A stretch of 64,000 nt of DNA, taken from assembly GCA_002356455.1 (NCBI GenBank), contig AP017968.1, forward strand, positions 3,410,001 through 3,474,000, read 5' to 3'. The position numbers and the translations under genes are program-made. Position 1 is the first letter of the stretch. Every line of letters begins with the position of its first letter. Source of the DNA: Fusobacterium varium. Lineage in GTDB: Bacteria; Fusobacteriota; Fusobacteriia; Fusobacteriales; Fusobacteriaceae. Below the pieces are notes generated by a model. That model made no database searches and was not told where the DNA came from. It worked only from the letters and a program-made list of their open reading frames with translations. This document shows, piece after piece, positions 12,071 through 27,800 of this stretch.

Positions 12071-12133
12071 GAATTCCTCCTGATATCATAAAGTTTTTTA
12101 TAATTTTCTAAAAAATAAAAAACACCCTTTTAT

Positions 12134-12162
12134 AATATAAACTTAGTGTAATATTTTGTCAA
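12134..12162 (-). promoter_or_regulatory. Sigma-70 promoter of glsA
   Basis: TTGACA (12157-12162), 17-base spacer and TATATT (12134-12139) on the minus strand, about 60 bases upstream of the glutaminase start. Confidence 0.75.
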
Positions 12163-12444
12163 TAAATTTTCACTATTAATACAATTTATAGAATATAAAT
12201 ATTATATCTAAATAAATTTATGATTTATATTTTCTTTTTATTTTTATATAATATTTTTTTTCGTTTATATGTATATTTTAAATATATTTTAAAAACATAT
12301 TTCATAAATATTAGTTTTAAAAATATTTTTTCTTCATTAAATAAAATAATATATTTATTCTATCAATTTAATTTTTATATAAAATATATACTTTTTTAAT
12401 TTCTATAAAATTATAGTTTTTTAATAAATTTTACAATACTTTTT
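12163..12444. other. AT-rich intergenic region without recognised genes
   Basis: Extremely AT-rich stretch of runs of A and T between the glutaminase promoter and the helicase stop codon. I see no open frame with a ribosome site, no stable GC-containing hairpin and no clear terminator for the helicase gene. Confidence 0.6.
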
Positions 12445-15267
12445 CTAAGCCTGTAAATAGTCGAAAAGATCCTGTGGGACTTCATTCTTCAATTTCAATT
12501 CATATTCCACACGAGGTATCCCTTTTTCAGTAAAGCACTCTTTTGCCTTTAAAACTTTTTCAATCTGTCCCAAATAATAAAAACTTTCTCCTGAACTTTT
12601 TTTTGCAAATATTTCTAAAATATAATTATTTTCTGCTATTTTTCCTTCAGCTGTCAATTTATTATTTCTGCTCAAGCACCTATTATTTTTGGAAAACCAT
12701 GGGAATCTCTGCTGATCTAAAAATTTATTATCAAAAATACTGGAATCTTCCATTGTCACAAACATTATGACTTTTTTTTCTTTTTCAAAAACAGTGTATC
12801 CACTTACTTGATATCCATTATTGAAATCCAGATTCAATTGCCAGAATCCCTCTTGTTTTGTATATTGTTTATATTTTTGAATTGATTCTTTTCCAGATTG
12901 TTTATAGTTTTTTTCAACATATCCCAGATTATATTTAATTAAATCTTCTATTAATTCTCTAAAATATTTGTTATTCTCATATCCACTTTTAAAACTTTTA
13001 TTTAAATTATACTCTCCATCAACTTTTTCTAAAATAGGTTCAAATTCTTTCATAGTAGAAAGACTTGTAAATATTTCCTTGGAAAGATGTTTTATTCCAT
13101 TTTCTATATTTTCTTTTTGCTGTTTTATTTTATATTTCTTCTCTAAAATATCCTCTATTTTTTCTAATGAAATCTTTGTATTTTTAATACTTTCCTGTAA
13201 TATTACTATCTCATGAATTCTCTTTGCTGGAGTGAAAAAACTTGATAAAAAAGTTAAAAAATTCTTTTCTATTTCTGATAAAACTCCAAATTCTGTACTA
13301 GGTCTTAATGCTTTCAAAACACTATCATAATCTTTTCTAAATTTTAAAATTACACTTGGTTCTATCATATTTCTTATAAAAAAATCATTTAACATTGGAA
13401 TTCTTCCAAGTTGTTTTTCCAAAAGATTAAAATCATGTTCTATATTTTTTTTAGTTGAAAAATTGGTCTTATTTATATTTTCAAATATTCTTTCTTTTAC
13501 TATTTCTTCAAAAGAAATTGAACTTTCTCCTGGGATCATATTTGTTCCATTTAAAAGGAATTTCTTCATAAAATCCTTATCAAAACTATTGTTTTGAGAA
13601 ATTGCGGTTGGTATCAAAAAGTTTTTCTCATAATTTCCTATAAAATCTAAAACTACAACAAACTCTTTATTTTCATTTTTTCTTAATCCTCTCCCTAATT
13701 GTTGAATATATACAATAGAAGATTCTGTAGGTCTTAAAAGAATAACTTGATTCACACAAGGAATATCAACTCCTTCATTAAAAATATCTACAGTTATAAT
13801 ATATTCTATCTCTCCGTTTTCTAATTTTTCAATAGCATTCTCTCTTGCATTATCCCCATGTTCTCCTGTAAGTGCTATACATTTTATTCCTCTTTCATTA
13901 AACTTTTCAGTAAGAATATTTGCTTCCTCCACTCTTGATACAAACATCAAGCCATGAAGTTTTTCTCCACTGTATCCATAATATCTGCTTTTTTCAATTA
14001 TATGATCTATTCTTTGCTCTAAAGTAAGATTTTTTATCGAAGTTTTATTATCAATGCATTCTCCATCTATTGTTATATCTGAAACCCCAAAATAATGAAA
14101 TGGACATAGTAAATTTTCTCTAAGTGCATCATAAAGCCTTATTTCATAAGCTATATTATGATCAAATAATCTATAGATATCAAAGTCATCACTTCTTTCT
14201 GGTGTTGCTGTCATTCCTAGCAAAAAATCTGGTTTAAAATAATTTATTATACTTTGATAAGTTTTAGCTCCACTGTGATGAACTTCATCAATTATTATAT
14301 AATTAAAATAATTTTTAGGAAATCTTTCTAAATGTTCTTTTTTATTTAAAGTTTGAACCATAGCAAATATATAATCTGCATCTGCAATATTTTCTTCCCC
14401 ATACACAACCATTTTTTTATTTTTTATAATACTTTCAAATGTATATTTAGCTTTTTTTAATATAGTTTTTCTATGAGCTATAAACAGCATTCTTTCTGGT
14501 TTTACATTTTTTACATCAAAAGCACTTAAATATGTTTTTCCTGTTCCAGTTGCACTAATCAATAACCCTTTATCTTCACTTTCCCTCAGTAACTTTAAAT
14601 TTTCCAATGCTTCTTTCTGCATAAAGTTAGGTTTTATATCTTTTTTAAATAAAGAATTTTGATTTTTTTCTTGAGTTTTAGAATAATTTTTTGAAAGTTT
14701 ATATATTTTTTCATAATTATCTATCATTTCTAAATCCAATTTAGGAAGTCTTTCAAAAATTTCTTCAAAACTATTTAAAATATCTTTTGTAATTTTCCCA
14801 TCCTCTAAAGAATTTATTTTTAAGTTCCACTCAAAGTTTACTGTTAAAGCTGTCTGAGTTAAATTACTGCTTCCAATTATCAAAGTCCAAAGATTTCCTT
14901 TTCTAAAAAAATATCCTTTAGCATGAAATTTTTCTTTAGATAATATTTTCAATTCAACATTTTTATATTTCAACAGCCTTTTTAATGCTTTTGGTTCAGT
15001 AAAATTTAAGTAATCTCCAGTAAGAATTTTTCCCTTCACATTTCTATTTTCAAGTTCTTTCAGCTGTTCTAAAATTAAAGATAATCCTCCCTCTGTTACA
15101 AATGCTACCGAAATTATAAATTCATCACAATTTTCTAATTCTTTTCTCAAATTTATTACTATTTTCTCAGCTTTATTACAAAGTAATTTATGCTGAAAAT
15201 TTTGACTTGACTCTATATTTAAATTTATTGAACTTGTTTTAAAACTTTCAATTAAACTTTTTTCCAC
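12445..15267 (-). CDS. PLD-nuclease/superfamily II helicase fusion with C-terminal DUF3427
   Basis: A 940-residue protein with three parts. Residues about 30-170 form a phospholipase-D-like domain with the HxK(x)nGSSN motif (HAKGYFF...IIGSSNLT). Residues about 215-580 are a DEAD/DEAH-type helicase core: Walker A SATGTGKTYLS, DEVH box, motif III MTATPER, motif VI QQLGRGLRK. The C-terminal third matches the DUF3427 pattern, including YQVSGYTVFEKEKKVIMFVT and RFPWFSKNNR. The start is GTG 15267 after GGAGGG. Such fusions are usually annotated as DNA-repair or restriction-like helicases, and some occur in defence loci; no partner methylase or defence gene is present here, so it stands alone. Confidence 0.88.
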   Translation of the reverse strand: MEKSLIESFKTSSINLNIESSQNFQHKLLCNKAEKIVINLRKELENCDEFIISVAFVTEGGLSLILEQLKELENRNVKGKILTGDYLNFTEPKALKRLLKYKNVELKILSKEKFHAKGYFFRKGNLWTLIIGSSNLTQTALTVNFEWNLKINSLEDGKITKDILNSFEEIFERLPKLDLEMIDNYEKIYKLSKNYSKTQEKNQNSLFKKDIKPNFMQKEALENLKLLRESEDKGLLISATGTGKTYLSAFDVKNVKPERMLFIAHRKTILKKAKYTFESIIKNKKMVVYGEENIADADYIFAMVQTLNKKEHLERFPKNYFNYIIIDEVHHSGAKTYQSIINYFKPDFLLGMTATPERSDDFDIYRLFDHNIAYEIRLYDALRENLLCPFHYFGVSDITIDGECIDNKTSIKNLTLEQRIDHIIEKSRYYGYSGEKLHGLMFVSRVEEANILTEKFNERGIKCIALTGEHGDNARENAIEKLENGEIEYIITVDIFNEGVDIPCVNQVILLRPTESSIVYIQQLGRGLRKNENKEFVVVLDFIGNYEKNFLIPTAISQNNSFDKDFMKKFLLNGTNMIPGESSISFEEIVKERIFENINKTNFSTKKNIEHDFNLLEKQLGRIPMLNDFFIRNMIEPSVILKFRKDYDSVLKALRPSTEFGVLSEIEKNFLTFLSSFFTPAKRIHEIVILQESIKNTKISLEKIEDILEKKYKIKQQKENIENGIKHLSKEIFTSLSTMKEFEPILEKVDGEYNLNKSFKSGYENNKYFRELIEDLIKYNLGYVEKNYKQSGKESIQKYKQYTKQEGFWQLNLDFNNGYQVSGYTVFEKEKKVIMFVTMEDSSIFDNKFLDQQRFPWFSKNNRCLSRNNKLTAEGKIAENNYILEIFAKKSSGESFYYLGQIEKVLKAKECFTEKGIPRVEYELKLKNEVPQDLFDYLQA

Positions 15268-15353
15268 ATTTCCCTCCTTAAATACTTCCTATCACTTAAA
15301 TAGTATTTTATCATTTTATAATCAATTTTAATAGAAGGTTTAATTTATATAAA

Positions 15354-15407
15354 TAAAAAATGAGAAGAGCTAAATTTAAATAAAAAGGCAATCTTTAGCT
15401 GTTCTCA
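15354..15407 (-). terminator. Terminator after the metallophosphoesterase gene
   Basis: Fourteen-base arms (15361-15374 and 15394-15407) that pair except for one mismatch, followed by six T residues on the minus strand. Located 13 bases after the phosphoesterase stop. Confidence 0.8.
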
Positions 15408-15419
15408 AAATTTTTAAAA

Positions 15420-16499
15420 TTATTTTATTTTTATAATGACAATTTCTGACTGGCTGCCTATACGAATAGGTGGTCCCCAAGTTCCATAACCAGAAGAAAC
15501 TATAATATTTGTATTCTCTATTTTTTCATGTCCATAATCTATTTTAAAAATCTTTTTAGTAAAAATCCTTCCTGGAAACATCTGTCCTTTATGAGTATGT
15601 CCTGATACCTGTAAAAAAACTTCATTTTCTATCGTTTCGTCAACAGTATCTGGAGTATGCTGTATAAGAATAACAGGCTTGTCATCCTTTCCAGCTAATA
15701 TTTCCTTAATTGGTTTTTGCGAAAAATTATCTCTCCCTGCTATATAAATTTCATTATTTAGCAGAATTTTTTCATCTCTCAATACAATAGTTCCTGCATC
15801 ATTTCTAAGGGTTTCTGTAAGTATTGCTGCTTTCCTTCCATAAATATCATGATTCCCTAAAGTAAAAAAAGTTCCATATGTACTTTTTATATTTTTTAAT
15901 TCATTCAGCATATTTTTTTCTAAAACAGGTTCTAAGTACATATCTATTAAATCTCCTGCTATAAGGACTACATCTGGTTTTAAAGAATTTATTTTATCTA
16001 TCATTTTTACCAATGAAGTATTTTCATTTATATAACCTAAATGAACATCTGAAACCAAAACTATGTTCATAGGGACTGATATCTCTCCCATACTATCTAT
16101 TTCATATTCTGTTATTACTGTATTATGTTTATAGAAAGTTCCTATTCCTAATATGATAAAAATTATTATAAATGCTGGTTTGTATAAATTAAAATTTAAT
16201 TTATATCTGAATATCATCTCTATTATTGAAACTAAAAAATATATCATAGCTCCATAGATAACAAAAGCTAAATAATAGTAAACTATATATGAAAGAATTC
16301 TATTAATTGTGTACGAAAAATTATTTACAAAATATGAATTAAAAAACTGATATCCATATAAAAGTATAGTCATCATTAAAAATAATACTATTATAAATAT
16401 CTTCTTATCAGAGGAAAATACATATTTAACTGTCTTTTTCATAACAAAAAGACAAAATGCAAAAAGCATTGCTGATAACCCAAGAAAAAAGTAGTTCAT
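15420..16499 (-). CDS. Membrane-anchored calcineurin-like metallophosphoesterase
   Basis: A 359-residue protein with about four or five N-terminal membrane helices (residues 1-135) followed by a metallophosphoesterase domain. The domain shows the full metal-ligand set: LVSDVHLGY, PDVVLIAGDLID, TLGNHDIYG, VILIQHTPD and QVSGHTHKGQMFPG. It resembles the YaeI/YkuE-type membrane-linked phosphodiesterases, some of which act on lipid head groups. The catalytic side cannot be fixed from sequence. Start ATG follows AGGAG. Its promoter has the architecture of MerR-family targets, suggesting induction by a metal or stress signal (inference). Confidence 0.87.
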   Translation of the reverse strand: MNYFFLGLSAMLFAFCLFVMKKTVKYVFSSDKKIFIIVLFLMMTILLYGYQFFNSYFVNNFSYTINRILSYIVYYYLAFVIYGAMIYFLVSIIEMIFRYKLNFNLYKPAFIIIFIILGIGTFYKHNTVITEYEIDSMGEISVPMNIVLVSDVHLGYINENTSLVKMIDKINSLKPDVVLIAGDLIDMYLEPVLEKNMLNELKNIKSTYGTFFTLGNHDIYGRKAAILTETLRNDAGTIVLRDEKILLNNEIYIAGRDNFSQKPIKEILAGKDDKPVILIQHTPDTVDETIENEVFLQVSGHTHKGQMFPGRIFTKKIFKIDYGHEKIENTNIIVSSGYGTWGPPIRIGSQSEIVIIKIK

Positions 16500-16552
16500 C
16501 CATTCAACTCCTATTCATTTAAACTTTATAAAATAAATATTTTATTTAATGA

Positions 16553-16583
16553 AGTGTAACACATGAAGTTAACTCCATGTCAA
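16553..16583 (-). promoter_or_regulatory. MerR-type promoter of the metallophosphoesterase gene
   Basis: TTGACA (16578-16583) and TACACT (16553-16558) on the minus strand are 19 bases apart, longer than normal. The spacer is filled by a near-palindrome, ACATGGAGTTAACTTCATGT (16561-16580, one mismatched pair). An overlong spacer containing a palindrome is the hallmark of promoters controlled by MerR-family activators such as ZntR and SoxR. No MerR gene is in the window. Confidence 0.55.
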
Positions 16584-16928
16584 GAATATTTTTTATTTAT
16601 AAATTTTTCCTCAAAAAAAAAATTTTAAATAGTTGATTTAAGTCAGCAAACGTAATATAATAATATTATATATTAAATATATAAACATCAGTTATATAAT
16701 CATATTTTTTACATTTTGTAGTTCAAATATTAAAATAAATATCATTTTCAGTACTCTGAATCAAAAATAAAACAATTTTTTAATATAAATACATATATTT
16801 TTTTTATACTTTATTTGAAAATTATATTTTTAACAACACTTCAATTATTACTTTAATATTACATAATTTATATAGTTAAATCAAAAAAATTATTATTTAA
16901 AAATAATTTACTTTTGCAGTAAAAAATA
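16584..16928. other. AT-rich intergenic spacer between divergent units
   Basis: About 345 bases of very AT-rich DNA between the phosphoesterase promoter and the promoter of the HMA/ATPase cassette. No open frame with a ribosome site or stable hairpin was found. Confidence 0.5.
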
Positions 16929-16957
16929 TTGAAATTATTCAAAAATAGAGGTATACT
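16929..16957 (+). promoter_or_regulatory. Sigma-70 promoter of the HMA/P-type ATPase cassette
   Basis: TTGAAA (16929-16934), 17-base spacer, TATACT (16952-16957). Expected start near 16964, about 60 bases before the first gene. Confidence 0.8.
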
Positions 16958-17026
16958 TTAGAAAAAGTTTTAATGTCAAATAATCTAATATTATTATATT
17001 TTGAAAATCGTTATGGAGGTAATTGA

Positions 17027-17521
17027 GTGAAGAATAGTACACTGCCTAGCTTTTATGGAATACTGGAAATACAGCATTACATAAAAGGAAGAATAAGAAT
17101 AAAAGTTGAATCTTTAAAAAATGATAATGAAAAAGTTGAAGAATTAAGACTAAACCTATTGAAACTCAATGGAATAGATGAAGTAACTATCAATTCTTTA
17201 TTAGGAACTGTTCTTATAAAATTTGATGAAGACATAATAGAACCTGTTATTCTTATAGGAGTTCTACTCAATTTTTTAGGTCTTGAAGAAGAAGCTTTTG
17301 AAAAGAAAAATGGAAAAATATCTTTTGTACTAAAAGATATACTTGAAGCTATGGATATGACCTTATATAACAAAACAAAAGGAATATTGGATTTAAAAAC
17401 ATCAATAGCTTTATTTTTTCTAATATATGGAGTAAAAAAAATAAGACAGAATCCAATAATGCCAAATGGTGTAAATCTATTATGGTGGGCATATAATATA
17501 ATGACAAGAGGAGGAAAATAA
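17027..17521 (+). CDS. HMA_2-like domain protein with C-terminal hydrophobic segment
   Basis: A 164-residue protein, first gene of a five-gene cassette. Start is GTG after GGAGG. The N-terminal 85 residues form a ferredoxin-like domain of the HMA_2 kind: HYIKGRIRIKVESL, then INSLLGTVLIKFDED. It lacks the CxxC metal site of true heavy-metal-associated domains. The C-terminal part (residues about 125-155) is hydrophobic and may insert in or lie on the membrane. The same HxIxGRIRI motif opens the next two proteins, and a variant opens the fourth. It probably works with the P-type ATPase encoded downstream, as a regulatory or assembly partner (inference). Confidence 0.75.
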   Translation: MKNSTLPSFYGILEIQHYIKGRIRIKVESLKNDNEKVEELRLNLLKLNGIDEVTINSLLGTVLIKFDEDIIEPVILIGVLLNFLGLEEEAFEKKNGKISFVLKDILEAMDMTLYNKTKGILDLKTSIALFFLIYGVKKIRQNPIMPNGVNLLWWAYNIMTRGGK

Positions 17522-17525
17522 AATA

Positions 17526-17909
17526 GTGAATACTTTATTAAAAACAACATTTTTTTACTTTAATAAAATAAAAGTAGTTCATAGTATTCCTGGAAGAATA
17601 AGATTATCAGTTCCTGGTTTAAATAATGTGCCAGAAAATATGAGAAAATATGAACATTACACTACCTCTCTTATAAAAATTGAAGAAGGAATCAAAGACA
17701 TTTCTTATTCTTATATTACTGGAAAAGTCCTTTTGACTTATGACAAAAATGTAACAAATGAACAGAAGATACTGGATTGGATAAATTTTATATGGAAAAA
17801 AGTTATTGACAATGAGGATGTTTATAATAAGATGCAGCCTGAAGAAATAGAAAAAAATCTTGATAAACTTTATGAAATGCTTTGTAAAGAGCTGAAAAAA
17901 GGGAGATAA
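17526..17909 (+). CDS. HMA_2-like domain protein
   Basis: A 127-residue protein starting with GTG, four bases after the previous stop, using an AGGAGG about twelve bases upstream. It contains one HMA_2-like domain (VHSIPGRIRLSVPGL near residue 20, SYSYITGKVLLTYDK near 70) and a charged C-terminal helix. No CxxC and no membrane segment are present. Paralogous to the N-terminal domains of the flanking genes. Role unknown; tight coupling to the ATPase gene (5-base gap) suggests a shared function. Confidence 0.72.
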   Translation: MNTLLKTTFFYFNKIKVVHSIPGRIRLSVPGLNNVPENMRKYEHYTTSLIKIEEGIKDISYSYITGKVLLTYDKNVTNEQKILDWINFIWKKVIDNEDVYNKMQPEEIEKNLDKLYEMLCKELKKGR

Positions 17910-17914
17910 TTCAA

Positions 17915-20110
17915 ATGGAAAGAACTAGTAATGGATATCTCTTATCTTGTGAAGTTGTCCATAAAATAAGAGGAAGAATACGTATAAAATCAAGAGCATT
18001 AAAATATCTTGGCAACATGAAACAAAATATAGAAAAACAGTTAGAAGAAGTCAGATATATCAATAGTGTAAAAATAAGCAGCATTACAGGTACCATAGTA
18101 ATATATTTTACTGATATTACTGTTACTGAAGAAAATCTAATAGCTCTTCTGCAAAATACATTAAATGTATATCTTGTAGAAATATATAAAAATGAAAAAA
18201 TAGAAAACAATAAGCAAATAGTAATAGAAAGAAAACTACAGGAGGAATCTCCAGAAGAAATAATTAAAAAAATTACAGCAGCTGGAGGATTACTTGCATA
18301 TAATATATTTAAAAAATCTCCTGTTGAACCAGTGACAGGACTAAAAAGAATTCTGAACCTTAACACATTATCAATATTTTCATTAGCTGCTCCTGTTATA
18401 AAAAATGGAATAGGTTCAATTATCAGAAATAAAAGACCTAATGCTGATACTCTAAGTTCAAGTGCTATTATCAGCAGTTTGCTCTTAGGAAAAGAAAAAA
18501 CAGCTCTTACTATAATGATATTGGAGGAGTTTGCTGAGCTTCTTACAGTATATACAATGAAAAAAACAAGAGGAGCTATCAAAGATATGCTCAGTGTTGG
18601 AGAAAATTATGTCTGGAAACAAATAGATGTAAATAATATAAAAAAAGTTTCTATTGATGAAATTCAAAAGGGTGATAAAATTGTAGTTCAGACAGGTGAA
18701 AAAATCAGTGTGGATGGAATTATAGTAAAAGGGGAAGCTTTTATTGACCAATCATCTATTACTGGAGAATATATGCCTGTAACTAAAAAAATAGGTGAAA
18801 ATGTCTTTGCTGGAACTATAATAAAAAATGGAAATATAACCATTGAAGCTGAAAAAGTAGGAGATGACAGAACTGTATCCAGAATAATCAAACTTGTAGA
18901 AGATGCTAATTTTAATAAAGCTCAAATACAAAATTATGCAGATACATTCTCAGCTCAACTTATTCCTCTAAACTTTCTCTTAGCAGGAATAGTATATGCT
19001 GCTACAAGAAATATACAAAAAGCTATGAGTATGCTTGTTATAGATTATTCATGTGGTATCAGACTTTCTACTGCTGCTGCATTTTCAGCAGCTATCAATA
19101 CAGCAGCTAAAAATGGTATACTTATAAAAGGAAGCAACTATATTGAAGAACTATCAAAAGCAGATACAATAATATTTGACAAAACTGGTACTATCACTGA
19201 AGGAAAGCCAAGTGTACAAACAATTAAGGTGTTAGATAAATCACTTGAAGAAAATACTATGCTCGCCTATGCTGCTGCTGCTGAAGAAACATCAAGTCAT
19301 CCACTAGCTGTAGCTATACTTAATGAAGTCAAAGACAGAGGTATTGAAATACCACTGCATGAAGAAAATAAAATAGTATTGGCAAGAGGTATTGAAACTG
19401 TAGTAGATGGTAAAGTTATAAGAGTAGGAAGTAAAAAATTCATGGAAGAAAATGGTATTCCTACTGAAAAAAATCATGAAGAAGTAAAAGTAATTCTTGG
19501 AAGAGGAGAAATTCTCATCTACATATCAAGAGATAATAAATTGATAGGTTTATTAGGAGTAACTGACCCACCTAGAGAAAACATTAAAAAAACTATTAAT
19601 AGACTTAGAGGTCAGGGAATAGATGAAATAATTCTTCTTACTGGAGATTTAGAACAACAGGCACATACCATTGCTTCAAGGATGGCAATAGACAGCTATG
19701 AATCCGAACTTCTTCCTGAAGATAAGGCAAAAAATATCCTTGCTCTTCAATCAAGAGGCGGAAAAGTGATAATGATAGGAGATGGAATAAATGATGCTCC
19801 TGCATTGTCTTATGCTAATATTGGAATAGCTCTGGGAAGCACAAGAACAGATGTTGCCATGGAGGCAGCTGATGTCACTATAACTAAAGATGATCCGCTA
19901 TTGGTTCCAGAAGTAATTGGGTTATCTAAAAAAACTGTAAGTACAATAAAAGAAAACTTTGCAATGGCAATAGGAGTAAACTCTTTTGCTTTGGTATTAG
20001 GGGCTACTGGAATACTTCCAGCTATATATAGTTCTGTTATTCATAATTTGAGTACTATACTTGTAGTAGGAAATTCTTTAAAATTATTAAAATATAAATT
20101 AAAAAATTAA
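17915..20110 (+). CDS. P1B-type ATPase with N-terminal HMA_2 domain and SCG membrane motif
   Basis: A 731-residue heavy-metal-type P-ATPase. Order: HMA_2 domain (1-85, HKIRGRIRIKSRAL), hydrophobic segments (about 130-225), actuator domain with TGE (SSITGEYMPVTK), further helices, then the phosphorylation domain DKTGT (Asp about 422), the P1B-specific HP dipeptide (TSSHPLAVAI) and hinge GDGINDAPAL. The intramembrane metal-site motif, normally CPC, CPH or SPC, reads DYSCGIRLS here (S379-C380-G381), an unusual variant, so the transported ion cannot be assigned. The N-terminal domain has no CxxC. Likely a metal exporter in the inner membrane, working with the adjoining HMA_2 proteins. Confidence 0.85.
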   Translation: MERTSNGYLLSCEVVHKIRGRIRIKSRALKYLGNMKQNIEKQLEEVRYINSVKISSITGTIVIYFTDITVTEENLIALLQNTLNVYLVEIYKNEKIENNKQIVIERKLQEESPEEIIKKITAAGGLLAYNIFKKSPVEPVTGLKRILNLNTLSIFSLAAPVIKNGIGSIIRNKRPNADTLSSSAIISSLLLGKEKTALTIMILEEFAELLTVYTMKKTRGAIKDMLSVGENYVWKQIDVNNIKKVSIDEIQKGDKIVVQTGEKISVDGIIVKGEAFIDQSSITGEYMPVTKKIGENVFAGTIIKNGNITIEAEKVGDDRTVSRIIKLVEDANFNKAQIQNYADTFSAQLIPLNFLLAGIVYAATRNIQKAMSMLVIDYSCGIRLSTAAAFSAAINTAAKNGILIKGSNYIEELSKADTIIFDKTGTITEGKPSVQTIKVLDKSLEENTMLAYAAAAEETSSHPLAVAILNEVKDRGIEIPLHEENKIVLARGIETVVDGKVIRVGSKKFMEENGIPTEKNHEEVKVILGRGEILIYISRDNKLIGLLGVTDPPRENIKKTINRLRGQGIDEIILLTGDLEQQAHTIASRMAIDSYESELLPEDKAKNILALQSRGGKVIMIGDGINDAPALSYANIGIALGSTRTDVAMEAADVTITKDDPLLVPEVIGLSKKTVSTIKENFAMAIGVNSFALVLGATGILPAIYSSVIHNLSTILVVGNSLKLLKYKLKN

Positions 20111-20121
20111 GGAGATAATCA

Positions 20122-20880
20122 ATGAAAAAACTTACACTGACAATTCTTCATAGATTGCCTAATAGAGTAAGATTAAAACTTTCAGTTCCTATTAAAAACT
20201 TTGATTCATTTGAAAGAAATATAACTCATGATATTAAAGAAAGCATTGATATAAAGTATACTCCTGTGACTAGAACAGTAACTGCAAAATTTGACCCTGA
20301 AAGTATATATCTTCAAGAGGTAATATATAAAATATTAACAGCATTTTCTATAGAGAATGGAATGATTCCTGTAAAACTTTTGGAGGGAACTGAACAAAAA
20401 GCCATGGAAAGATTTTCTGTCTATTCAGGAGCTACTATTATTATGTCAGGGCTGCATATGTTAATGAATAAAAATGGAACTGAACTGCAAAATATGATGA
20501 ACTGGTTTTCATTAGGAATGACCTCAGCTGCTATATTTGAACATGCCTGTATAGAAATCAATAAAAAAGGGGTCTTTGATTTAGAAATACTTCCAGCAAT
20601 GTATCTGGTAAAATCATTTTTAAATACACCTAAGTTATCTTTAGTTGCTATGATATGGCTGACAACATTCGGAAGACACCTTATAACTACATCAAATTCA
20701 GCTAAAGAAATTAAAATATTCAGAATAAAAAATCAAAAAGATAATAAATATCATTATATAGCAAATATTTCTGATGATCACAGTATTGAAAATATAGGAG
20801 ATCTGTTATATCATATCTTCTTTAGAAAAGGCAGAGATTTGGTAAAACCAAGTGAAAAATATATAACTATAAACAAATAA
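20122..20880 (+). CDS. HMA_2-like domain protein with central hydrophobic region
   Basis: A 252-residue protein, 11 bases after the ATPase stop, with GGAGAT as ribosome site. The N-terminal 75 residues are a divergent HMA_2-like domain (LHRLPNRVRLKLSVP). Residues about 95-195 hold four or so hydrophobic stretches (ATIIMSGLHMLM, FSLGMTSAAIFEHA, LEILPAMYLVKSFL, LSLVAMIWLTTFG) that resemble the first membrane segments of the ATPase. The C-terminal 60 residues are polar. It may be a membrane partner derived from the ATPase N-terminal half (inference). Confidence 0.7.
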   Translation: MKKLTLTILHRLPNRVRLKLSVPIKNFDSFERNITHDIKESIDIKYTPVTRTVTAKFDPESIYLQEVIYKILTAFSIENGMIPVKLLEGTEQKAMERFSVYSGATIIMSGLHMLMNKNGTELQNMMNWFSLGMTSAAIFEHACIEINKKGVFDLEILPAMYLVKSFLNTPKLSLVAMIWLTTFGRHLITTSNSAKEIKIFRIKNQKDNKYHYIANISDDHSIENIGDLLYHIFFRKGRDLVKPSEKYITINK

Positions 20881-20900
20881 ATTAAATAGGAGGTACAAAA

Positions 20901-21197
20901 ATGTTCGGATTTGGACAAGGAAATGGTGGAATAACTAAAGCTCATTTAGTAGGTGCAGCAGTAGGTGTAGGTGTAACAGTAGCTGGATATTACCTATACA
21001 AAAAGAATAAATCAAAAGTAGATGGATTTTTAAAGTCACAAGGTATAAATATAAAAAGCTGTGATTCTACAAATTATGAAGATATGTCAGTAGAAACTTT
21101 AACTGAAGTTAAAGAACACATAGAAGATATATTAGCAGAAAAAGAATTAAACAATGTAAATGTTGAGCAATGTGACATTTCTTGTGAAGCTAAATAA
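20901..21197 (+). CDS. Small membrane protein with cysteine C-terminus
   Basis: A 98-residue protein, last gene of the cassette, ATG after AGGAGG. A Gly-rich N-terminus leads into one transmembrane segment (AHLVGAAVGVGVTVAGYYLY, about 14-33), then a basic stretch, Cys54, an acidic helix (about 60-85) and a CxxxC at residues 91-95 (CDISC). The layout (membrane anchor, helix, metal-binding tail) is like that of PacL-type partners of mycobacterial P1B-ATPases, though I see no sequence homology. It may present metal to the ATPase (inference). Confidence 0.75.
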   Translation: MFGFGQGNGGITKAHLVGAAVGVGVTVAGYYLYKKNKSKVDGFLKSQGINIKSCDSTNYEDMSVETLTEVKEHIEDILAEKELNNVNVEQCDISCEAK

Positions 21198-21224
21198 ATC
21201 TCTGCATTTATAAAAATGAACTTA

Positions 21225-21262
21225 TGTCTGTTAAGCTAAATAACTTAACAGGCATTTTTCTT
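21225..21262 (+). terminator. Terminator of the HMA/P-type ATPase cassette
   Basis: Eleven-base stem (21225-21235 and 21244-21254, one G-U pair) with an 8-nt loop, followed by a T-rich run. Located 28 bases after the last stop codon of the cassette. Confidence 0.85.
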
Positions 21263-21416
21263 TTTAAAATATTTTGTATTTTTTCAAATATTTAATTATA
21301 CTTTAACTTAAATAATTTAAAGGAAAAAAGATTGTTTTATAATTTTCAATCTAATATAATTTATTTTTAGTATGCGTAATAATTTATTTTCTTTAAATAT
21401 ATTTTTAAAAAAATAC

Positions 21417-21445
21417 TTGCATTTTATTTTTATATATTGTATTAT
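21417..21445 (+). promoter_or_regulatory. Sigma-70 promoter of the 34-residue peptide gene
   Basis: TTGCAT (21417-21422), 17-base spacer, TATTAT (21440-21445). Start expected near 21452, 40 bases before the small ORF. Confidence 0.65.
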
Positions 21446-21492
21446 TAAGCAATTAATTTTTTTAAAAATAATTGAAAAGGAGAAAATACAGT

Positions 21493-21597
21493 ATGTTTAT
21501 TTCTAATATGACAAACCTCATACTCACTTTATTGGTTATAACTTTTATAAGCAATATATTTTTGAGTGTGAAAAATCATATTAGGAACTCCCTCTAA
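21493..21597 (+). CDS. 34-residue hydrophobic peptide, toxin-like small protein
   Basis: A short ORF with its own promoter, an AAGGAG site ten bases before the ATG, and a strong terminator 37 bases after the stop. The peptide begins MFISNMTNLILTLLVI and is hydrophobic through residue 24, then ends in a basic tail containing KNHIRN. One membrane span plus a basic tail is the general form of type I toxin peptides and small membrane regulators. No antisense RNA gene could be identified. The isolated, monocistronic unit supports expression; the function is unknown. Confidence 0.5.
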   Translation: MFISNMTNLILTLLVITFISNIFLSVKNHIRNSL

Positions 21598-21633
21598 TTT
21601 TATTATATAAAATTTTAAAATTTGAAACTTGGA

Positions 21634-21665
21634 GACAGCCTGATTTGAGGCTGTCTTTTTTATTT
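21634..21665 (+). terminator. Strong terminator of the small-peptide unit
   Basis: Perfect 8-bp stem GACAGCCT / AGGCTGTC (21634-21641 and 21648-21655), 6-nt loop and a run of T. Confidence 0.9.
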
Positions 21666-21690
21666 ATAAAATTTTTTAGGGGGAATTGAA

Positions 21691-21792
21691 ATGAAGAAAA
21701 TAACAATATTTAAAGAAAACTTTAAAGAAAGAAATGTAAATAGAATAATAATAAAATATATAAATTTCAAATCAATTCTACTCTGTTTCTAA
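21691..21792 (+). CDS. Possible 33-residue basic peptide
   Basis: ATG preceded by AGGGGG at 7-base spacing, 33 codons (starts MKKITIFKENFKERNVNR), very Lys/Ile-rich. It lies between the terminator at 21634-21665 and the YkvI-like gene, in AT-rich DNA where short chance ORFs are common. Only the ribosome site argues for it. Confidence 0.2.
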   Translation: MKKITIFKENFKERNVNRIIIKYINFKSILLCF

Positions 21793-21847
21793 ATATTAAT
21801 CTCATAGAATATTACTACTTAAGAATATAAAACAGAGGAGAAGAATT

Positions 21848-23032
21848 ATGATAAAAGAAAATAATAATTATACTAAAATTGGATTTGGAGCAATATTTGC
21901 AGTAGCTAGTGTCTTATTCAGCTCACATGCAGGAGGAGGTTTTGCCAGTGGTAATCAAGCTACTCAATATTTTGTAGGAAATGGTATATGGGGAGTAATT
22001 TCAGCTATAATAGCAATGGCTCTTTTAGCTCTTACTATAAGAGAATGTATTATTATGAAAAATTCAAGAAACTTAAAAAGTTACAAAGAACTTTTTGAAA
22101 CTTTATACCATCCTTTTGATAAATTAGAATGGTTGTTTGAAATATATTTCAATATTATGGTAATATGTGCAGTTGGAGCTGTTATTGCTGGTGCAGCTTC
22201 TCTGATTTCAGCTAATGGAATTATGGGATATAAAATGGCTGTACTGGGAGTTGGAGCTATTTTACTTGTTATGACTATATTTGGTTCTGACTTGGTATCT
22301 AAAGTTTCTACAGTAATGTCAGTATGTATCTTAATATCCACTTTCATAATATTTTTCATGGGAATAAAAGCTAAAATACCAGAAATATCTATAATTTTTT
22401 CTCAAGGATTTTTTACTGACAATACTATAATAAAAAAATCCATCCTTAATGCTTTTACATATGCTGGTTTTCAATCTGTTGTCATTCCTACAATGATAGC
22501 TTGCGGAAAACAATTGGGAGACAAAAAGAATGTTTCAAAATCTATGATAATAGCTTTTATAATGAATTCTATTGCTCTAGGAATGTCAGTAGTCATGTTG
22601 TTAGGGTGGCATGGAGACTTTACTCAGGCTGGCGCTACTACATTGCCTTCTTTGTATATATGCCAACAGCTGGATGTTAATATCTTATACTGGTTTTATA
22701 ATATTGCTTTGTTATTATGTTTCATATCAACTGGAGTAACTACTATATATGGTTTTGTTTCAAGATTCTCTGCTATAAAAGTCATGGAAAAAATTAAAAA
22801 ACCTATTATAAGGAGAATTTTAACTTCAAGTTTTTGTATGATTATATCTATGAGTGTATCAATGATAGGTCTTAGCAGAATTATAAAGTATGGCTATGGT
22901 TATTGCGGATATTTAGGCATTGCAATTATTATAATTCCATTTTTAACAGTTGGTGCTTATAAAAACAGAAAATACGCAGCTGAAAATAATTTTGTAATAT
23001 CTATAAAAAGAGAGCAGGCTTTTGCTGAATAA
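21848..23032 (+). CDS. YkvI-family membrane transporter
   Basis: A 394-residue inner-membrane protein with about ten helices, matching the COG3949 (YkvI) family of uncharacterised APC-like transporters. The N-terminal helix has the unwound-helix pattern SSHAGGGFASGNQATQYFV that is typical of the family and resembles sodium-coupled amino acid carriers. Start ATG follows AGAGGAG. The next gene, 36 bases downstream, is an alcohol dehydrogenase; they probably form an operon for uptake and oxidation of one compound. The substrate is not known. Confidence 0.85.
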   Translation: MIKENNNYTKIGFGAIFAVASVLFSSHAGGGFASGNQATQYFVGNGIWGVISAIIAMALLALTIRECIIMKNSRNLKSYKELFETLYHPFDKLEWLFEIYFNIMVICAVGAVIAGAASLISANGIMGYKMAVLGVGAILLVMTIFGSDLVSKVSTVMSVCILISTFIIFFMGIKAKIPEISIIFSQGFFTDNTIIKKSILNAFTYAGFQSVVIPTMIACGKQLGDKKNVSKSMIIAFIMNSIALGMSVVMLLGWHGDFTQAGATTLPSLYICQQLDVNILYWFYNIALLLCFISTGVTTIYGFVSRFSAIKVMEKIKKPIIRRILTSSFCMIISMSVSMIGLSRIIKYGYGYCGYLGIAIIIIPFLTVGAYKNRKYAAENNFVISIKREQAFAE

Positions 23033-23068
23033 TACTATATGAAAATTTAAGAAAAAGGAGAATTTTAA

Positions 23069-24139
23069 ATGAATACAAGAAATATATTTTTACCAAATTA
23101 CAGCATTGGAGAAAATCCCTATAATGAAATTCCTTCTATTTGTGAAGCATATGGAAAAAAAGTAGTTTTTATAGGTGGAAAAACAGCTTTAGCTAAAACT
23201 AGTGATATAGTTAAAGAAATAATAAAGAACAGTAAGTTAGAAGTTATTGACATTCTTTGGTTTGGTGGAGAAGCATGTTATGAAAATGTTGACAAATTAA
23301 AGCAGGAAAAATCCATTATAGAAGCTGATATGATATTTGCTTTTGGTGGAGGTAAGGCAATAGACACTTGTAAATGTCTTACTGGAGAGCTTAAAAAACC
23401 TCTCTTCACTTTTCCAACTATATCTTCAACTTGTGCATCTGTCACTTCTGTTTGTGCTATGTACAATGAAAATGGTTCTTTCAAAAATCTTTACTGGAGA
23501 TTTGCTCCAGCAGAGCATACTTTCATAAGTACAAAAATAATTTCAGAAGCACCAGAAAAATATCTATGGGCAGGAATTGGAGATACTATGGCGAAAGGAT
23601 ATGAACCAGAATTTTCTTCAAGAGGCAAATCTTTAAATCACTCAAACGCTCTTGGAGTTACTTTATCAAAACTATGTCAGGAACCTCTTGTTAAATATGG
23701 AAAAAAAGCTCTTGATGACTGTAAAGCAAACAAAGTATCCACTGAATTAGAAGAAACAATTCTTGCTATAATTGTCACAACCGGGATTGTTTCAAACTAT
23801 GTAATAAATGACTATAATAGCTCTCTGGCTCATGCATTATGCTATGGATTCTCTACTATTCATCATATTGAAGTCAGTCATTTGCATGGAGAAATTGTTT
23901 CTTATGGAGTTCTTGTATTGCTTATGGTAGATGGAAGAACTCATGAAATCAATAGAATAATACCATTTTATAAAAGTATTGGACTTCCTGTATCATATAA
24001 AAACCTTGGTACAGATGAAAAAGAAATGGAAATTGTTATTCAAAAAGCTGTAGATGTTCCTGATTTAAATGTTTCTGCTTTCCCTGTTACAAAAGAAATT
24101 ATTTGGGAAGCTATCAAAAAATTAGAAAGTTTTAAATAA
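23069..24139 (+). CDS. Iron-containing alcohol dehydrogenase (glycerol-dehydrogenase-like)
   Basis: A 356-residue cytoplasmic oxidoreductase. It shows the nucleotide-binding FAFGGGKAIDTCK motif (near residue 90), PTISSTCASVTSVC, the metal-ligand motifs GIGDTMAK and SLAHALCYGFSTI, and SHLHGEIVSYGVLVLL. Length and motif order match the GldA/EgsA branch, which uses NAD and Zn or Fe to oxidise glycerol-like polyols. Start follows AAAGGAG. Paired with the YkvI-like transporter and ended by a strong terminator. The true substrate may be another hydroxy compound. Confidence 0.85.
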   Translation: MNTRNIFLPNYSIGENPYNEIPSICEAYGKKVVFIGGKTALAKTSDIVKEIIKNSKLEVIDILWFGGEACYENVDKLKQEKSIIEADMIFAFGGGKAIDTCKCLTGELKKPLFTFPTISSTCASVTSVCAMYNENGSFKNLYWRFAPAEHTFISTKIISEAPEKYLWAGIGDTMAKGYEPEFSSRGKSLNHSNALGVTLSKLCQEPLVKYGKKALDDCKANKVSTELEETILAIIVTTGIVSNYVINDYNSSLAHALCYGFSTIHHIEVSHLHGEIVSYGVLVLLMVDGRTHEINRIIPFYKSIGLPVSYKNLGTDEKEMEIVIQKAVDVPDLNVSAFPVTKEIIWEAIKKLESFK

Positions 24140-24199
24140 AAAATACTCTCTTTGTAAAAGGTAATTCATCTATCTTTTATAAAGAGAGTATTGTTATTT
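24137..24199. terminator. Bidirectional terminator between the dehydrogenase and HU genes
   Basis: Nineteen-base arms (24142-24160 and 24174-24192, one mismatch) with T-rich tails on both sides, placed between convergent genes. Confidence 0.85.
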
Positions 24200-24207
24200 T
24201 ATTATTT

Positions 24208-24480
24208 CTATTTATCCTGAATATTTTTAGATTCTCTGAATTTCACTGTTTTTCTTGGATAAATCTTCATAGGTTCTTTAGTTACTGGATTGGCTATTAT
24301 TCTTGGTTTTCTTTCCTTCACTTCAAATATTCCTATATTTCTAAATATCAATGAATGACTTTTCTGCAAAGCCTCCTGCATTGTTTCAAGAAATACTTCT
24401 ATTTCTTTCAGTGCTTTTCTTGCTGATATTTCCCCTTTACTTGTTTCACTGTATACTTTTGCTAATTCTCTCTTATTCAT
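24208..24480 (-). CDS. HU/IHF-family DNA-binding protein
   Basis: A 90-residue protein, exactly the usual HU length when started at ATG 24480 (with GGAG upstream and overlap with the preceding gene); an ATG at 24495 would add five residues. The MNKRELAKVYSE N-terminus and IFRNIGIFEVKERKPRIIANPVTKEPMKI arm match the HU/IHF beta-arm region. Sequence is divergent from standard HU. Co-transcribed with another HU-like gene, after an autotransporter gene. HU/IHF proteins bend DNA and assist site-specific recombination, which is of interest beside a possible invertible promoter. Confidence 0.85.
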   Translation of the reverse strand: MNKRELAKVYSETSKGEISARKALKEIEVFLETMQEALQKSHSLIFRNIGIFEVKERKPRIIANPVTKEPMKIYPRKTVKFRESKNIQDK

Positions 24481-24766
24481 CAGTACCAGCTCCATTTACT
24501 ATATCCTGCAAGCCCGCTCCTGCTCTGAATCTTATCTTCTTTTTAGATTTTGTATAACCAGATTTATTTATTTTAGTTATCATTATTTTTCTTGGTTTTA
24601 CCTCTTTTTCTTCAAATGTTCCCCAATTTTTAAAGGTTATCTTTTCACCTTCATTCAGAACTTTTAGCAGTGTATTCCAGAATAAGTCTATCTTTTCTTT
24701 TACTTCCTGCTGATTCTTTAGTCCATTTCTCTTTTTATAGAATCTTATAAATTCCCCTTCTGTCAT
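24473..24766 (-). CDS. Second HU/IHF-family DNA-binding protein
   Basis: A 97-residue divergent HU-like protein. FKNWGTFEEKEVKPRKI (near residues 45-61) corresponds to the conserved GxFxxxxxxxR segment preceding the DNA-binding arm, and KKKIRFRAGAGLQDIVNG to the C-terminal strand. ATG follows GGGGGAAG. It overlaps the next HU gene by 8 bases, so the two may be made together and form a heterodimer like IHF (inference). Confidence 0.8.
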   Translation of the reverse strand: MTEGEFIRFYKKRNGLKNQQEVKEKIDLFWNTLLKVLNEGEKITFKNWGTFEEKEVKPRKIMITKINKSGYTKSKKKIRFRAGAGLQDIVNGAGTDE

Positions 24767-24797
24767 AACTTCCCCCTTAAAATATCATGATTATTTG

Positions 24798-24829
24798 TTA
24801 AAAGGCTGGCTATTTATCAGCCAGCCTTT
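24798..24829 (-). terminator. Terminator after the autotransporter gene
   Basis: Perfect 11-bp stem AAAGGCTGGCT / AGCCAGCCTTT (24801-24811 and 24819-24829). The T run is short, so some read-through into the HU genes is possible. Confidence 0.75.
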
Positions 24830-24842
24830 CACTTTTTAATCT

Positions 24843-27800
24843 TTAGAACTTATAACCCAGTCCTGTTCCTACTATCCATTCACCTTTTGTCTTATTCTTT
24901 CCAGATTGATTATGTGAATCTCTTTCTACAGAGTAAGTTCCTTTTACATCAAACAAGATTCCATTTTCCAGTTCAAGTGCATATTTAGCATTCAATCCTA
25001 AGCTATGTTCATTCTTGTGGGCAACTAATATATCAAAGTCGCTTCCACCTTTGAATCTTCCTGTGATATATTCTTCATCTGCGCCATTAAGCAGTCTTGT
25101 ATAGCTTGCCCCAACTGATAATGTACTCTTTCCTTTTTCATGTGGTATCACTTTTTTAAGATCTATTCCCATTTTTCCAACTGTGTAGTCAAATGATTGT
25201 GAATCTGTTTCTATTGCTAAAGTTTTATTTCCTTCATCTGCTCCATCCTGTTTTACATATGTATATGACAGAGTTGCATAAGGTTCTAAGTATAGATTAT
25301 CTCCAATATTATGTGAATATCTTCCATTCAGATAAATATCATAAGTCAAATCATTGTAGCTTGAAGAATAGCTTCTTGTTTCTGTAATTTCTCTTCCTGC
25401 TGCTGTTCTGTTAGCATCATAGTCTCCATATTGAAATCCCATTCCTGCTGTTACTTTTAGATTTCCAAGATACTTCTTAGCATATCCTCCAATATACAGC
25501 GCATCTCCATCAACTTTTGAGCCATTAGACAAGTCAGATTTAAACTTGTTTCCTCCAACTGCCACTCCAGCTTTAAAGTCATCAGATACTCCATACTCTC
25601 CAAGCATATATGCTCCTGTGATTTTTGTATCAGAATCTATATCAGAACTTCCTATATCATAAGTATAATATCCTTTTCCATAATATGTATCTTTAGTTCC
25701 TCCATCTATATGAGTAAGTCCACCATATATCATCCATTTTCCTGTATCTGCTTTAAATGAATTTTCAGTAACTATATCTCTGAACATTCCCATTGATTTT
25801 ATTGATAATTCAGAAGAATATGAGTATGGATTTCCTGCATAGATATCATTTAAGTATCCCATAAAAGATGAGAATTTTTCATCAGTATCTACATTAAATT
25901 CTTTTACACCATCTACAACCCTCATACTTTGATATATTTTATTTAATTTCCCATAATTTGTATATTCAGGTGTTGTTGGTGACAGTGGAAGTGTAGATTT
26001 AGTTTCAACTGTTATTGTTGAAGAACCAGGAGTTTTTCTAATAGAATGTAAATATGAAGTTGTATCTAAAGTAAATAAATCTCTATATTCTATGTCTGGA
26101 TTTTCCACTCCATATATTCCATCTCCAAGTTTTATTCCCATATCTATTGTACTTCCATCAGATACTCCATTAAGCGCAAGAAGAAGTTTTCCACCATCTG
26201 AGTCTATTGTTCCACTACTATTTCCATTTGAAAGTGCATGTTTATTACTATTTGTTCCATCTATTCTTAATACAAACTCCCCGTTTTTACCAATATTAAT
26301 ATCTTTTGCTCCTGTAATTTCAGAAGTTTCAAATGCAGTTACTTTCTGATTTATATTTATATTTTCCACATTTGATATTTTATGGAAAAGATTTATATTA
26401 TCATTTCCCACTGCTCTGGAAACGGCTGAACTAAAATTTAAAGTATCATCCCCAGCATCTAAATCTATATCTCCATTGATAAAAGAATTTCCAGATATAT
26501 TTACTGTATTAGCTCCTGTACTTCCAGAAATAACAGGAGTAGTTCTATCTAAGCCCCCACCATTGATTGTTACATCTGTACTAGTAAATGAAGCTCCATC
26601 TTTAACTGTAACAGCAGTTTTATAGGCATTAATAATTCCGCCATTAAGGGAGAAATTTTTACCTGCTTCTATTGTTACTGTTCCACTGGCAACTCCAGCT
26701 CCATTGATGATTTTATTATTTTGTATTCCTTCAAAATTATCATAAGCATCTTTTCTACTATTTTTTAATTCTGTATTTATTATAGAATATATTCCTGTGC
26801 TACTTCCAGTTCCTGAGGTAATACCATTAGTTTTTATACTTCCATCACTCTCAAGAGTTATAGCCATTCCCTCTCTTTCAGGTTTGTTAATTGCTGTTCC
26901 GCCACCTTCAATTTTGACTGGTGTCTGTCCTATTACAAGTCCATAGTTCTTGTAGTCAGTAATTCCTGAATTAGAGTTTCCTACAATATATATTCCATTG
27001 CCATTTCCCATTATAACACCAGTATTTGATATTGATTCTATTATTGATGAACCAGAACTAGAATAAAGATAAATTCCATTTCCTGATTTATTTCCACTAT
27101 CATTTCCACTAATTATTCCATAATTCGTTATCTTTCCTATTTTACTCTTTGTAAAAGAACTAGTAGTACTAGAACTAGAATAAATTCCATTTACTGTATT
27201 ACTTCCAGTATTATTTCCACTAATTATTCCATAATTCGTTATCTTTCCTATTTTACTCTCTGGGAAAGAATCAAAACTATAAGAACTAGAATAAATTCCG
27301 TTTCCGTTCTCGCTACCAGAAACATTTCCGCTAATTATTCCATTATTGATTATATCACCTATTGTACTCTTATTACTTCTAGAAAAAATTCCATTTCCTA
27401 AATGAGTTCCATTACCAGTAGTACTACCACTTATTATTCCACTATTTGTTATATTTCCTATTATACTGCTTGAAGTATCAGAATAAGAAAATATTCCATT
27501 TCCTGATTTACTTCTATATCCACCAGTACTGTTTCCACTTATAGTTCCACTATTTGTTATATTTCCTATTATACTGCTTGAAGTATCAGAATAAGAAAAT
27601 ATTCCATTTCCTGATTTATCTCCACCAGTACTGCTCCCACTTATATTTCCATTATTCACTATATTTATTTTAATATTATTTGTATTTACTGTATCATCTA
27701 TTTTTACAGTTTTAGTTATATCTGTTCCTTCTGGTATTGTCCAGGTAAATTCACCAGCAGGATTTTTTGTTACTGTTCCTATATTAGTTCCTAAATCATC

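What the first reader, a model, noticed from the sequence alone, without database searches (positions are those of the whole stretch)
16929..21262. HMA_2 / P1B-ATPase / Cys-tail cassette with unusual SCG metal motif
Four consecutive proteins begin with related ferredoxin-like domains sharing H-x-[IL]-x-[GN]-R-[IV]-R, none with CxxC. The ATPase has SCG where characterised P1B pumps have CPC, CPH, SPC or TPC. The fifth protein is a one-span membrane protein with Cys54 and a CxxxC tail, laid out like PacL partners of mycobacterial pumps but unrelated in sequence. The whole looks like a membrane complex for an unassigned metal or other cargo.
Basis: partly seen in the sequence, partly recalled or inferred. 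Interest (0 to 1): 0.65.

Follow-up and report, generated by a model that had tools for sequence, protein, structure and literature searches.

The report
Iron-pump operon of ferrosome type
Five neighbouring genes in a Fusobacterium genome encode an ATP-driven pump of the iron-handling P1B-6 kind with four helper proteins, which suggests, without proof, that these bacteria move ferrous iron into a store or out of the cell.

Summary
The five-gene cassette is real and conserved. It lies at 17027-21197, with a promoter-like site at 16929 and a terminator-like site at 21224-21255. The same gene order occurs in 29 other Fusobacteriota genomes and 7 sampled Clostridia genomes.

The 'SCG' motif is off by one. 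The residues aligned to Cys-Pro-Cys are Tyr-Ser-Cys, inside an IDYSCG[IV][RK]LSTA stretch: Asp, Ser, Cys and Gly are invariant in 37 of 37 cassette ATPases. With the motif columns removed, a tree places the pump among P1B-6 ATPases, as a sister clade to DUF6110-linked pumps with D[FY][SC]CA[LIM][KR]. It also has the P1B-6 His-Asn in TM6. The tail cysteines of the fifth protein are not conserved (CxxxC in 2 of 18 relatives). Its transmembrane GxxxG is (18 of 18).

Neighbours of the sister pumps point to iron: FeoB in 6 of 20 stretches. Cassette neighbours are flavodoxin, a DtxR/MntR-type regulator or ABC-3 metal importers in a few genomes, and FeoB in none.

Best reading: a ferrous-iron pump with HMA_2 helpers and a GxxxG scaffold, most like ferrosome (fez) clusters. 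Group assignment is firm, ion likely, organelle inferred. Against it: no Fur box, and no sequence match of the fifth protein to DUF6110 or PacL.

The parts
16929..16957 (+). sigma-70-like promoter: TTGAAA, 17-base spacer, TATACT
   Evidence: Consensus scan only: 39 such sites found against 36.5 expected in shuffles. A similar site sits at the same place upstream of the cassette in other genomes, by eye.
17027..17521 (+). gene A, 164 aa, full-length HMA_2 protein (ferredoxin-like domain plus hydrophobic C-terminal half)
   Evidence: PF19991 E=3.7e-56; conserved first gene
17526..17909 (+). gene B, 127 aa, short soluble HMA_2 protein
   Evidence: PF19991 E=2.9e-11; no hydrophobic segment of 19 residues over 1.3
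17915..20110 (+). gene C, 731 aa, P1B-6-type ATPase with N-terminal HMA_2 domain
   Evidence: HMA_2 5.4e-11 and E1-E2_ATPase 1.7e-44; TIGR01525 3.7e-173; tree; DKTGT, [TS]GE, HP and GDG[IV]ND in 37 of 37
19043..19075 (+). TM4 signature of gene C, residues 377-387 DYSCGIRLSTA (aligned to ACPCALGLATP of copper pumps)
   Evidence: D377, S379, C380, G381 invariant in 37; Y378 in 36; R383 in 32, K in 5
20042..20047 (+). TM6 His710-Asn711 of gene C, the P1B-6 feature named in PMC9374683
   Evidence: invariant in 37 of 37; LHN in 17 of 17 DUF6110-linked ATPases
20122..20880 (+). gene D, 252 aa: diverged HMA_2-like N-terminal domain, helical middle with conserved His141 and His186, C-terminal strands
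   Evidence: 9 of 16 aligned D proteins match PF19991; model pLDDT 70.1; conservation
20901..21197 (+). gene E, 98 aa, one-span membrane protein with GxxxG in the span and an amphipathic KEHIEDLIAEKE-type stretch; PacL/DUF6110 layout
   Evidence: no Pfam family
21224..21255 (+). intrinsic-terminator-like stem-loop followed by a T run
   Evidence: Scan only: 2 found in the region, 1.0 expected.

Best explanation
The cassette is a fez-type operon. Gene C is a P1B-6 ATPase that binds a ferrous ion in an Asp377/Cys380 (TM4) plus His710/Asn711 (TM6) site and uses ATP to move it out of the cytosol. Gene E is a one-span GxxxG membrane protein that gathers the pump into patches or vesicles, the part played by FezA or PacL. 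A, B and D, with the N-terminal domain of C, are HMA_2 domains without cysteine. They dock on the pump and one another and regulate it or pass iron to it. The most likely outcome is storage of iron in membrane-bound ferrosome-like bodies. Plain efflux is the close alternative. Shown: gene content, conservation, catalytic motifs, P1B-6 placement. Inferred from neighbours and from literature on relatives: iron. Inferred by analogy only: the organelle, the metal-site residues, and the roles of A, B, D and E.
For: Tree of 47 ATPases with the TM4 motif columns removed. The P1B-6-like clade of 29 rows has support 100/99. The cassette plus Priestia clade (100/99) is sister to DUF6110-linked, Azospirillum, Vibrio and Gloeothece pumps (100/97); the branch that joins these two is 94/79. 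TM4 is D-Y/F-S-C-G-x-R/K in 37 of 37 cassette ATPases and D-Y/F-S/C-C-A-x-K/R in 17 of 17 DUF6110-linked ones. His-Asn in TM6 is the P1B-6 feature named in PMC9374683. Iron neighbours of the sister clade: FeoB in 6 of 20 fetched stretches of 8-16 kb, and a ferritin or DtxR-like regulator in some of the 20. Azospirillum has the same sort of cluster (two HMA_2-type proteins, two small proteins, a YtxH-like protein, the ATPase) next to an annotated iron ABC transporter. Cassette neighbours: flavodoxin just upstream in 4 loci of the F. mortiferum group, with DUF2023 in 3 of them; a DtxR/MntR-type regulator with ZnuA and ABC-3 genes just downstream in L059 and L066; ABC-3 plus a ZnuA-like protein just upstream in A. 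pronyense. Literature: C. difficile FezA (membrane protein) and FezB (transporter) make ferrosomes under Fur control (PMC12574912, passages). R. palustris uses six fez genes (PMC12016538, passages).
Against: No Fur-box-like site upstream: 0 of 36 regions beat shuffles at 0.05, lowest 0.06. FeoB near 0 of 39 cassette-type loci. The ABC-3 and MntR-like neighbours fit manganese or zinc as well as iron. E has no DUF6110 or DUF1490 match (profile comparison probabilities 3% and 0.2%). No DUF4405 (FezC type) match for any D protein. Ferritin survey is contradictory: cassette genomes lack a strong ferritin in family f1 (0 of 14) but mostly have one in f4 (14 of 16). No named FezB sequence could be fetched. 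That FezB is a P1B-6 ATPase, and that FezA carries GxxxG, are recalled, not read here: Grant 2022 and Pi 2023 are not held.
Confidence: 0.5

Rival explanations
1. Plasma-membrane Fe(II) (possibly also Mn(II)) efflux platform: same pump and ion, but E only clusters the pump at the cell membrane, as PacL does for mycobacterial pumps, and no storage body is formed.
For: CtpC-type pumps with DUF1490 partners branch in the same 29-row clade. PacL1 clusters and stabilises CtpC (PMC9374683, passages). Known Fe(II) P-type exporters exist, of P1B4 and Nia type (PMC7762939, passages).
Against: Known Fe(II) exporters are of other P1B groups. The TM4 of the cassette is of the DUF6110/P1B-6 type, not the CPC of CtpC. 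The multi-HMA_2 layout resembles the Azospirillum cluster more than the two-gene CtpC pair.
Confidence: 0.28
2. Manganese or zinc pump: a P1B-6-like exporter balancing an ABC-3 importer.
For: ABC-3/ZnuA genes adjoin the cassette in L043, L059 and L066; the L059 regulator scores best against MntR models, below their cut-offs. CtpC, in the same clade, is a zinc exporter (PMC9374683, passages).
Against: Seen in 3 of 39 loci only. The sister clade associates with FeoB (6 of 20). Flavodoxin is next to the cassette in another group.
Confidence: 0.13
3. One reading: a complex for an unassigned metal or a non-metal cargo, with metal handed over by the cysteines of E.
For: TM4 lacks CPC and its proline and carries Asp and Arg/Lys. 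HMA_2 domains have no CxxC. No substrate of any close relative was tested in the sources read, apart from the zinc exporter CtpC.
Against: Cys of E is not conserved. The ATPase belongs to a known group with iron neighbours.
Confidence: 0.07

Closest known systems
P1B-6 ATPases encoded with DUF6110 proteins (Boudehen et al. 2022, PMC9374683, Discussion passages)
   Same: Whole-length ATPase with HMA_2-like N-terminus, D-x-x-C in TM4 with Lys/Arg three residues after the Cys, His-Asn in TM6; a one-span GxxxG partner gene.
   Different: Gly instead of Ala after the Cys, STA instead of a proline-containing end. Partner not in DUF6110 by Pfam. Three extra HMA_2-type genes. A separate clade (100/100 for 13 rows).
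Ferrosome (fez) clusters of C. difficile (fezXAB), Desulfovibrio magneticus and Rhodopseudomonas palustris (Grant 2022, Pi 2023; known here only through PMC12574912, PMC11533511, PMC11334425, PMC12016538 passages)
   Same: An iron-transporting ATPase plus small membrane protein in one cluster. A cluster in another alphaproteobacterium has two HMA_2-type proteins (Azospirillum L162).
   Different: No DUF4405-like FezC, different small proteins, five-gene layout, no Fur box found, no organelle shown.
PacL1-CtpC zinc efflux platform (DUF1490 plus P1B6-like ATPase)
   Same: Gene pair layout, HMA_2-like N-terminus (by eye), His-Asn in TM6, one-span scaffold with glycines in the span.
   Different: CPC in TM4, DUF1490 partner with His/Asp metal motif, no HMA_2 companions.
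Priestia megaterium plasmid pBM400 cluster (L105)
   Same: HMA2, HMA2, ATPase, HMA2, 74-aa one-span protein; nearest outgroup of the cassette clade.
   Different: ICG in place of SCG; first two genes differ in size and order; ATPase about 38% identical.

Membership tests
P1B-6 ATPase | His-Asn motif in TM6 | tested here: met
   H710-N711 in 37 of 37; feature named in PMC9374683
P1B-6 ATPase | no CPC in TM4; D-x-x-C-[AG]-x-[KR] (as derived here from DUF6110-linked pumps; the published P1B-6 motif could not be read) | tested here: met
P1B-6 ATPase | phylogenetic grouping with DUF6110-linked pumps | tested here: met
   100/99 for the 29-row clade; 94/79 for the clade without the CtpC types
P1B-6 ATPase | Fe(II) as substrate (proposed in PMC7558416 Table 4) | not testable with these tools
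   needs transport or ATPase assay
Ferrosome (fez) cluster | P1B-6-type FezB | tested here: inconclusive
   type met, but no named FezB could be put in the tree; FezB = P1B-6 is recalled
Ferrosome (fez) cluster | small GxxxG membrane protein (FezA; GxxxG recalled) | tested here: inconclusive
   GxxxG in 18 of 18 E proteins; no homology to DUF6110 shown
Ferrosome (fez) cluster | FezC, DUF4405-like cytochrome (Desulfovibrio type) | tested here: not met
   no DUF4405 match for any of 16 D proteins nor for A-E
Ferrosome (fez) cluster | Fur repression (C. difficile) | tested here: not met
   0 of 36 upstream regions with a Fur-box-like site better than shuffles at 0.05
Ferrosome (fez) cluster | membrane-bound iron granules | not testable with these tools
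   electron microscopy needed
PacL / DUF1490 | DUF1490 profile and C-terminal metal motif | tested here: not met
   no Pfam match; hhalign 0.2%
DUF6110 | PF19605 profile | tested here: not met
   0 of 18 E proteins at E<=0.1; none in the genome; hhalign 3%
HMA_2 (PF19991) | Pfam gathering score | tested here: met
   A, B and C yes; D of the window no, 9 of 16 D relatives match at E<=0.1
CtpC-type P1B6-like ATPase | CPC in TM4 with DUF1490 partner | tested here: not met
   YSC in the CPC columns

The most novel reading that the evidence does not exclude
Fusobacteriota build ferrosome-like iron-storage organelles with a machinery of their own: a Gly-variant P1B-6 pump, a GxxxG scaffold unrelated in sequence to known ones, and cysteine-free HMA_2 domains on four of five proteins. 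In it, gene D, with two conserved histidines in predicted helices (His141, His186), would be a membrane iron- or heme-binding redox partner standing in for the cytochrome FezC.
Probability: 0.3. Interest if true: 0.8.

Novelty: new variant of a known kind. Interest (0 to 1): 0.55.

Why it matters
If true, Fusobacterium species, F. vincentii included, handle or store ferrous iron with a dedicated pump cluster. A search for papers holding both 'ferrosomes' and 'Fusobacterium' found two reviews; passages of one (PMC11533511) do not assign ferrosomes to Fusobacterium, and the other was seen only in the search listing. It would give the poorly characterised P1B-6 group a second, clearly bounded clade with its own TM4 signature (SCG against SCA), so that ion selectivity can be tested by comparison. 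It would also make the roles of cysteine-free HMA_2 domains and of GxxxG scaffold proteins testable in one operon.

Tried and rejected

Homology of E to PacL/DUF1490 or DUF6110: not shown. The published DUF6110-DUF1490 link did reproduce as a control (84%).

Riboswitch or RNA element: none over gathering scores in 11000-27000.

Fur box: none. Regulon search with the cassette promoter in six f4 genomes: found only the cassette itself.

Ferritin replacement: opposite trends in two families, so no conclusion.

Fold of D: ferredoxin-like N-terminus plus helices. No PDB match at E<=0.001; best hits ATP7B and copper chaperones.

'SCG motif' and 'HMA_2 + DUF6110' literature searches: no paper on this cassette.
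Full report
OBSERVATION. The five ORFs, the shared H-x-[IL]-x-[GN]-R-[IV]-R, the absence of CxxC in the N-terminal domains, SCG, Cys54 and the CxxxC tail are all as described. A promoter-like TTGAAA-17-TATACT at 16929-16957 and a terminator-like stem at 21224-21255 bracket them (consensus scans only, and the promoter count is no more than shuffles give). Pfam assigns HMA_2 to A, B and C. D of the window is below threshold, but 9 of 16 D proteins match. E has no family.

CONSERVATION. In Fusobacteriota 30 of 98 genomes, own included, have the ATPase at E below 1e-250. All 29 other loci carry A-B-C-D-E in that order: A is cut by the contig end in L050 and L068, and the ATPase ORF is split in L054 and L075. 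The window's genome belongs to the same genus as F. mortiferum An814: the contig of G022 equals NZ_JACSNP010000002.1 in length. In Clostridia 8 of 391 genomes passed E<=1e-115. Seven have the full cassette, including Acetoanaerobium pronyense; the eighth (L099) is a CPC pump without it. Fusobacterium vincentii carries it too (L107). Presence is patchy within genera. Priestia megaterium plasmid pBM400 has a related HMA2-HMA2-ATPase-HMA2-small protein cluster.

THE ATPASE. The catalytic motifs are intact in 37 of 37 sequences. Against solved P1B pumps the residues in the Cys-Pro-Cys columns are Tyr378-Ser379-Cys380. So the first Cys and the Pro are replaced, the second Cys is kept, and SCG is one column late. 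Asp377, Ser379, Cys380, Gly381, Asn689, His710 and Asn711 are invariant in 37; residue 383 is Arg in 32 and Lys in 5. An Asp and a basic residue in TM4 are unlike the CPC pumps in the panel.

PLACEMENT. DUF6110 (PF19605) proteins were found in 26 of 382 Clostridia genomes. Twenty stretches were read; 17 have an ATPase with V-D-[FY]-[SC]-C-A-[LIM]-[KR] and LHN. Boudehen et al. 2022 state that DUF6110 proteins are encoded with the poorly characterised P1B6 pumps, that His-Asn in TM6 is a P1B6 feature, and that CtpC is P1B6-like with CPC (PMC9374683, passages). A 47-row tree with the TM4 motif columns removed gives a 29-row clade (100/99). It holds the CtpC types, the DUF6110-linked pumps with Azospirillum, Vibrio and Gloeothece (100/97), and the cassette plus Priestia (100/99). 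The branch joining the last two groups is 94/79. The panel has no checked P1B-4 or P1B-5 reference, and many rows have biased composition, so deep branches should be read with care. I gave the tree 13 of the 37 cassette ATPases and 10 of the 17 DUF6110-linked ones.

ION. Shown: FeoB in 6 of 20 DUF6110 stretches (L142, L145, L146, L149, L153, L159), ferritin in L151, DtxR-like regulators in L145 and L146, flavodoxin in L153 (models). The Azospirillum cluster has two HMA_2-type proteins (one above the gathering score, one below), two small proteins, a YtxH-like protein (below cut-off) and the ATPase, beside an annotated iron ABC transporter. Around the cassette itself (39 loci, Priestia included): flavodoxin directly upstream in 4, DtxR/MntR plus ZnuA and two ABC-3 genes directly downstream in 2, ABC-3 and a ZnuA-like protein directly upstream in 1, FeoB in 0. 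Iron is the most economical ion; manganese is not excluded. A review table gives Fe(II) for P1B-6 and 'unknown' for P1B-7 (PMC7558416, passages). Smith 2014, its source, is not held.

PARTNERS. E keeps GxxxG in its span (18 of 18) and E-D-x-[IL]-A-E near its end, not its cysteines. DUF6110 has an invariant GxxxG. In PacL the glycines of the span are reported as essential for assembly (PMC13043812, passages). Homology of E to either was not shown, while DUF6110 against DUF1490 gave 84%. D is modelled with a ferredoxin-like N-terminus and four helices at moderate confidence. His141 is invariant and His186 nearly so in 16 sequences.

MECHANISM. The reading that fits most is a fez-type operon: a P1B-6 pump, a GxxxG scaffold and HMA_2 helpers moving Fe(II) out of the cytosol, probably into membrane-bound stores. 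In the passages read, C. difficile FezA and FezB are needed for ferrosomes and repressed by Fur (PMC12574912), the system is called fezXAB with iron phosphate inside (PMC11533511), FezB is a putative ferrous iron transporter and FezC a cytochrome (PMC11334425; PMC10979944), and R. palustris has six fez genes (PMC12016538). That FezB is a P1B-6 ATPase and FezA a GxxxG protein is my recollection of Grant 2022 and Pi 2023, which are not held.

AGAINST. No Fur box in 36 upstream regions. Ferritin shows no consistent replacement: strong ferritin in 0 of 14 cassette genomes of family f1 against 18 of 47 without the cassette, but 14 of 16 against 5 of 17 in f4. No DUF4405 protein. No feo next to the cassette. 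So the group assignment is firm (about 0.9), iron likely (about 0.65), and organelle formation a reasoned guess (about 0.45).

NOVELTY. A new variant of a known kind: a bounded P1B-6 clade with its own TM4 signature and a five-gene layout with four HMA_2-type domains. The literature searches made here showed no paper on it. They cover open-licence papers only, and the survey in Grant 2022 may already include these genomes.

Noticed in passing
window 16553-16583, - strand: MerR-type promoter by eye: TTGACA, 19-base spacer with a GGAGTTAACTTC dyad, TACACT, reading into the metallophosphoesterase gene 15420-16499. Relatives of that gene in L049, L051 and L052 lie next to a MerR-like regulator.
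   Followed up: partly
L054:6202-8396 and L075:6056-8238: The ATPase ORF is split in two in these two genomes, while the other cassette genes are intact.
   Followed up: no
L163:3899-6115 (Gloeothece verrucosa plasmid): A P1B-6-like ATPase with DFGTG, no Cys at all in the TM4 motif, beside DUF5132 and a 522-aa HMA2 protein.
   Followed up: no
window 21848-23032; L159:12408-13595: The downstream transporter-like gene (SSHAGGGFASGNQA) has a look-alike, by eye, near a DUF6110/P1B-6/FeoB locus in an unrelated genome.
   Followed up: no
window 24208-24495 and 24473-24766, - strand: Two overlapping tandem ORFs of about 95 aa that look like HU-type DNA-binding proteins (by eye).
   Followed up: no
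window 24843-27950, - strand: 1035-aa autotransporter-like protein with repeats and a beta-barrel-like end (by eye).
   Followed up: no
L109:1622-5447 (Pseudonocardia autotrophica plasmid): Annotated zinc ABC transporter substrate-binding protein next to a DUF1490 protein and a CPC-type P1B6-like ATPase.
   Followed up: no
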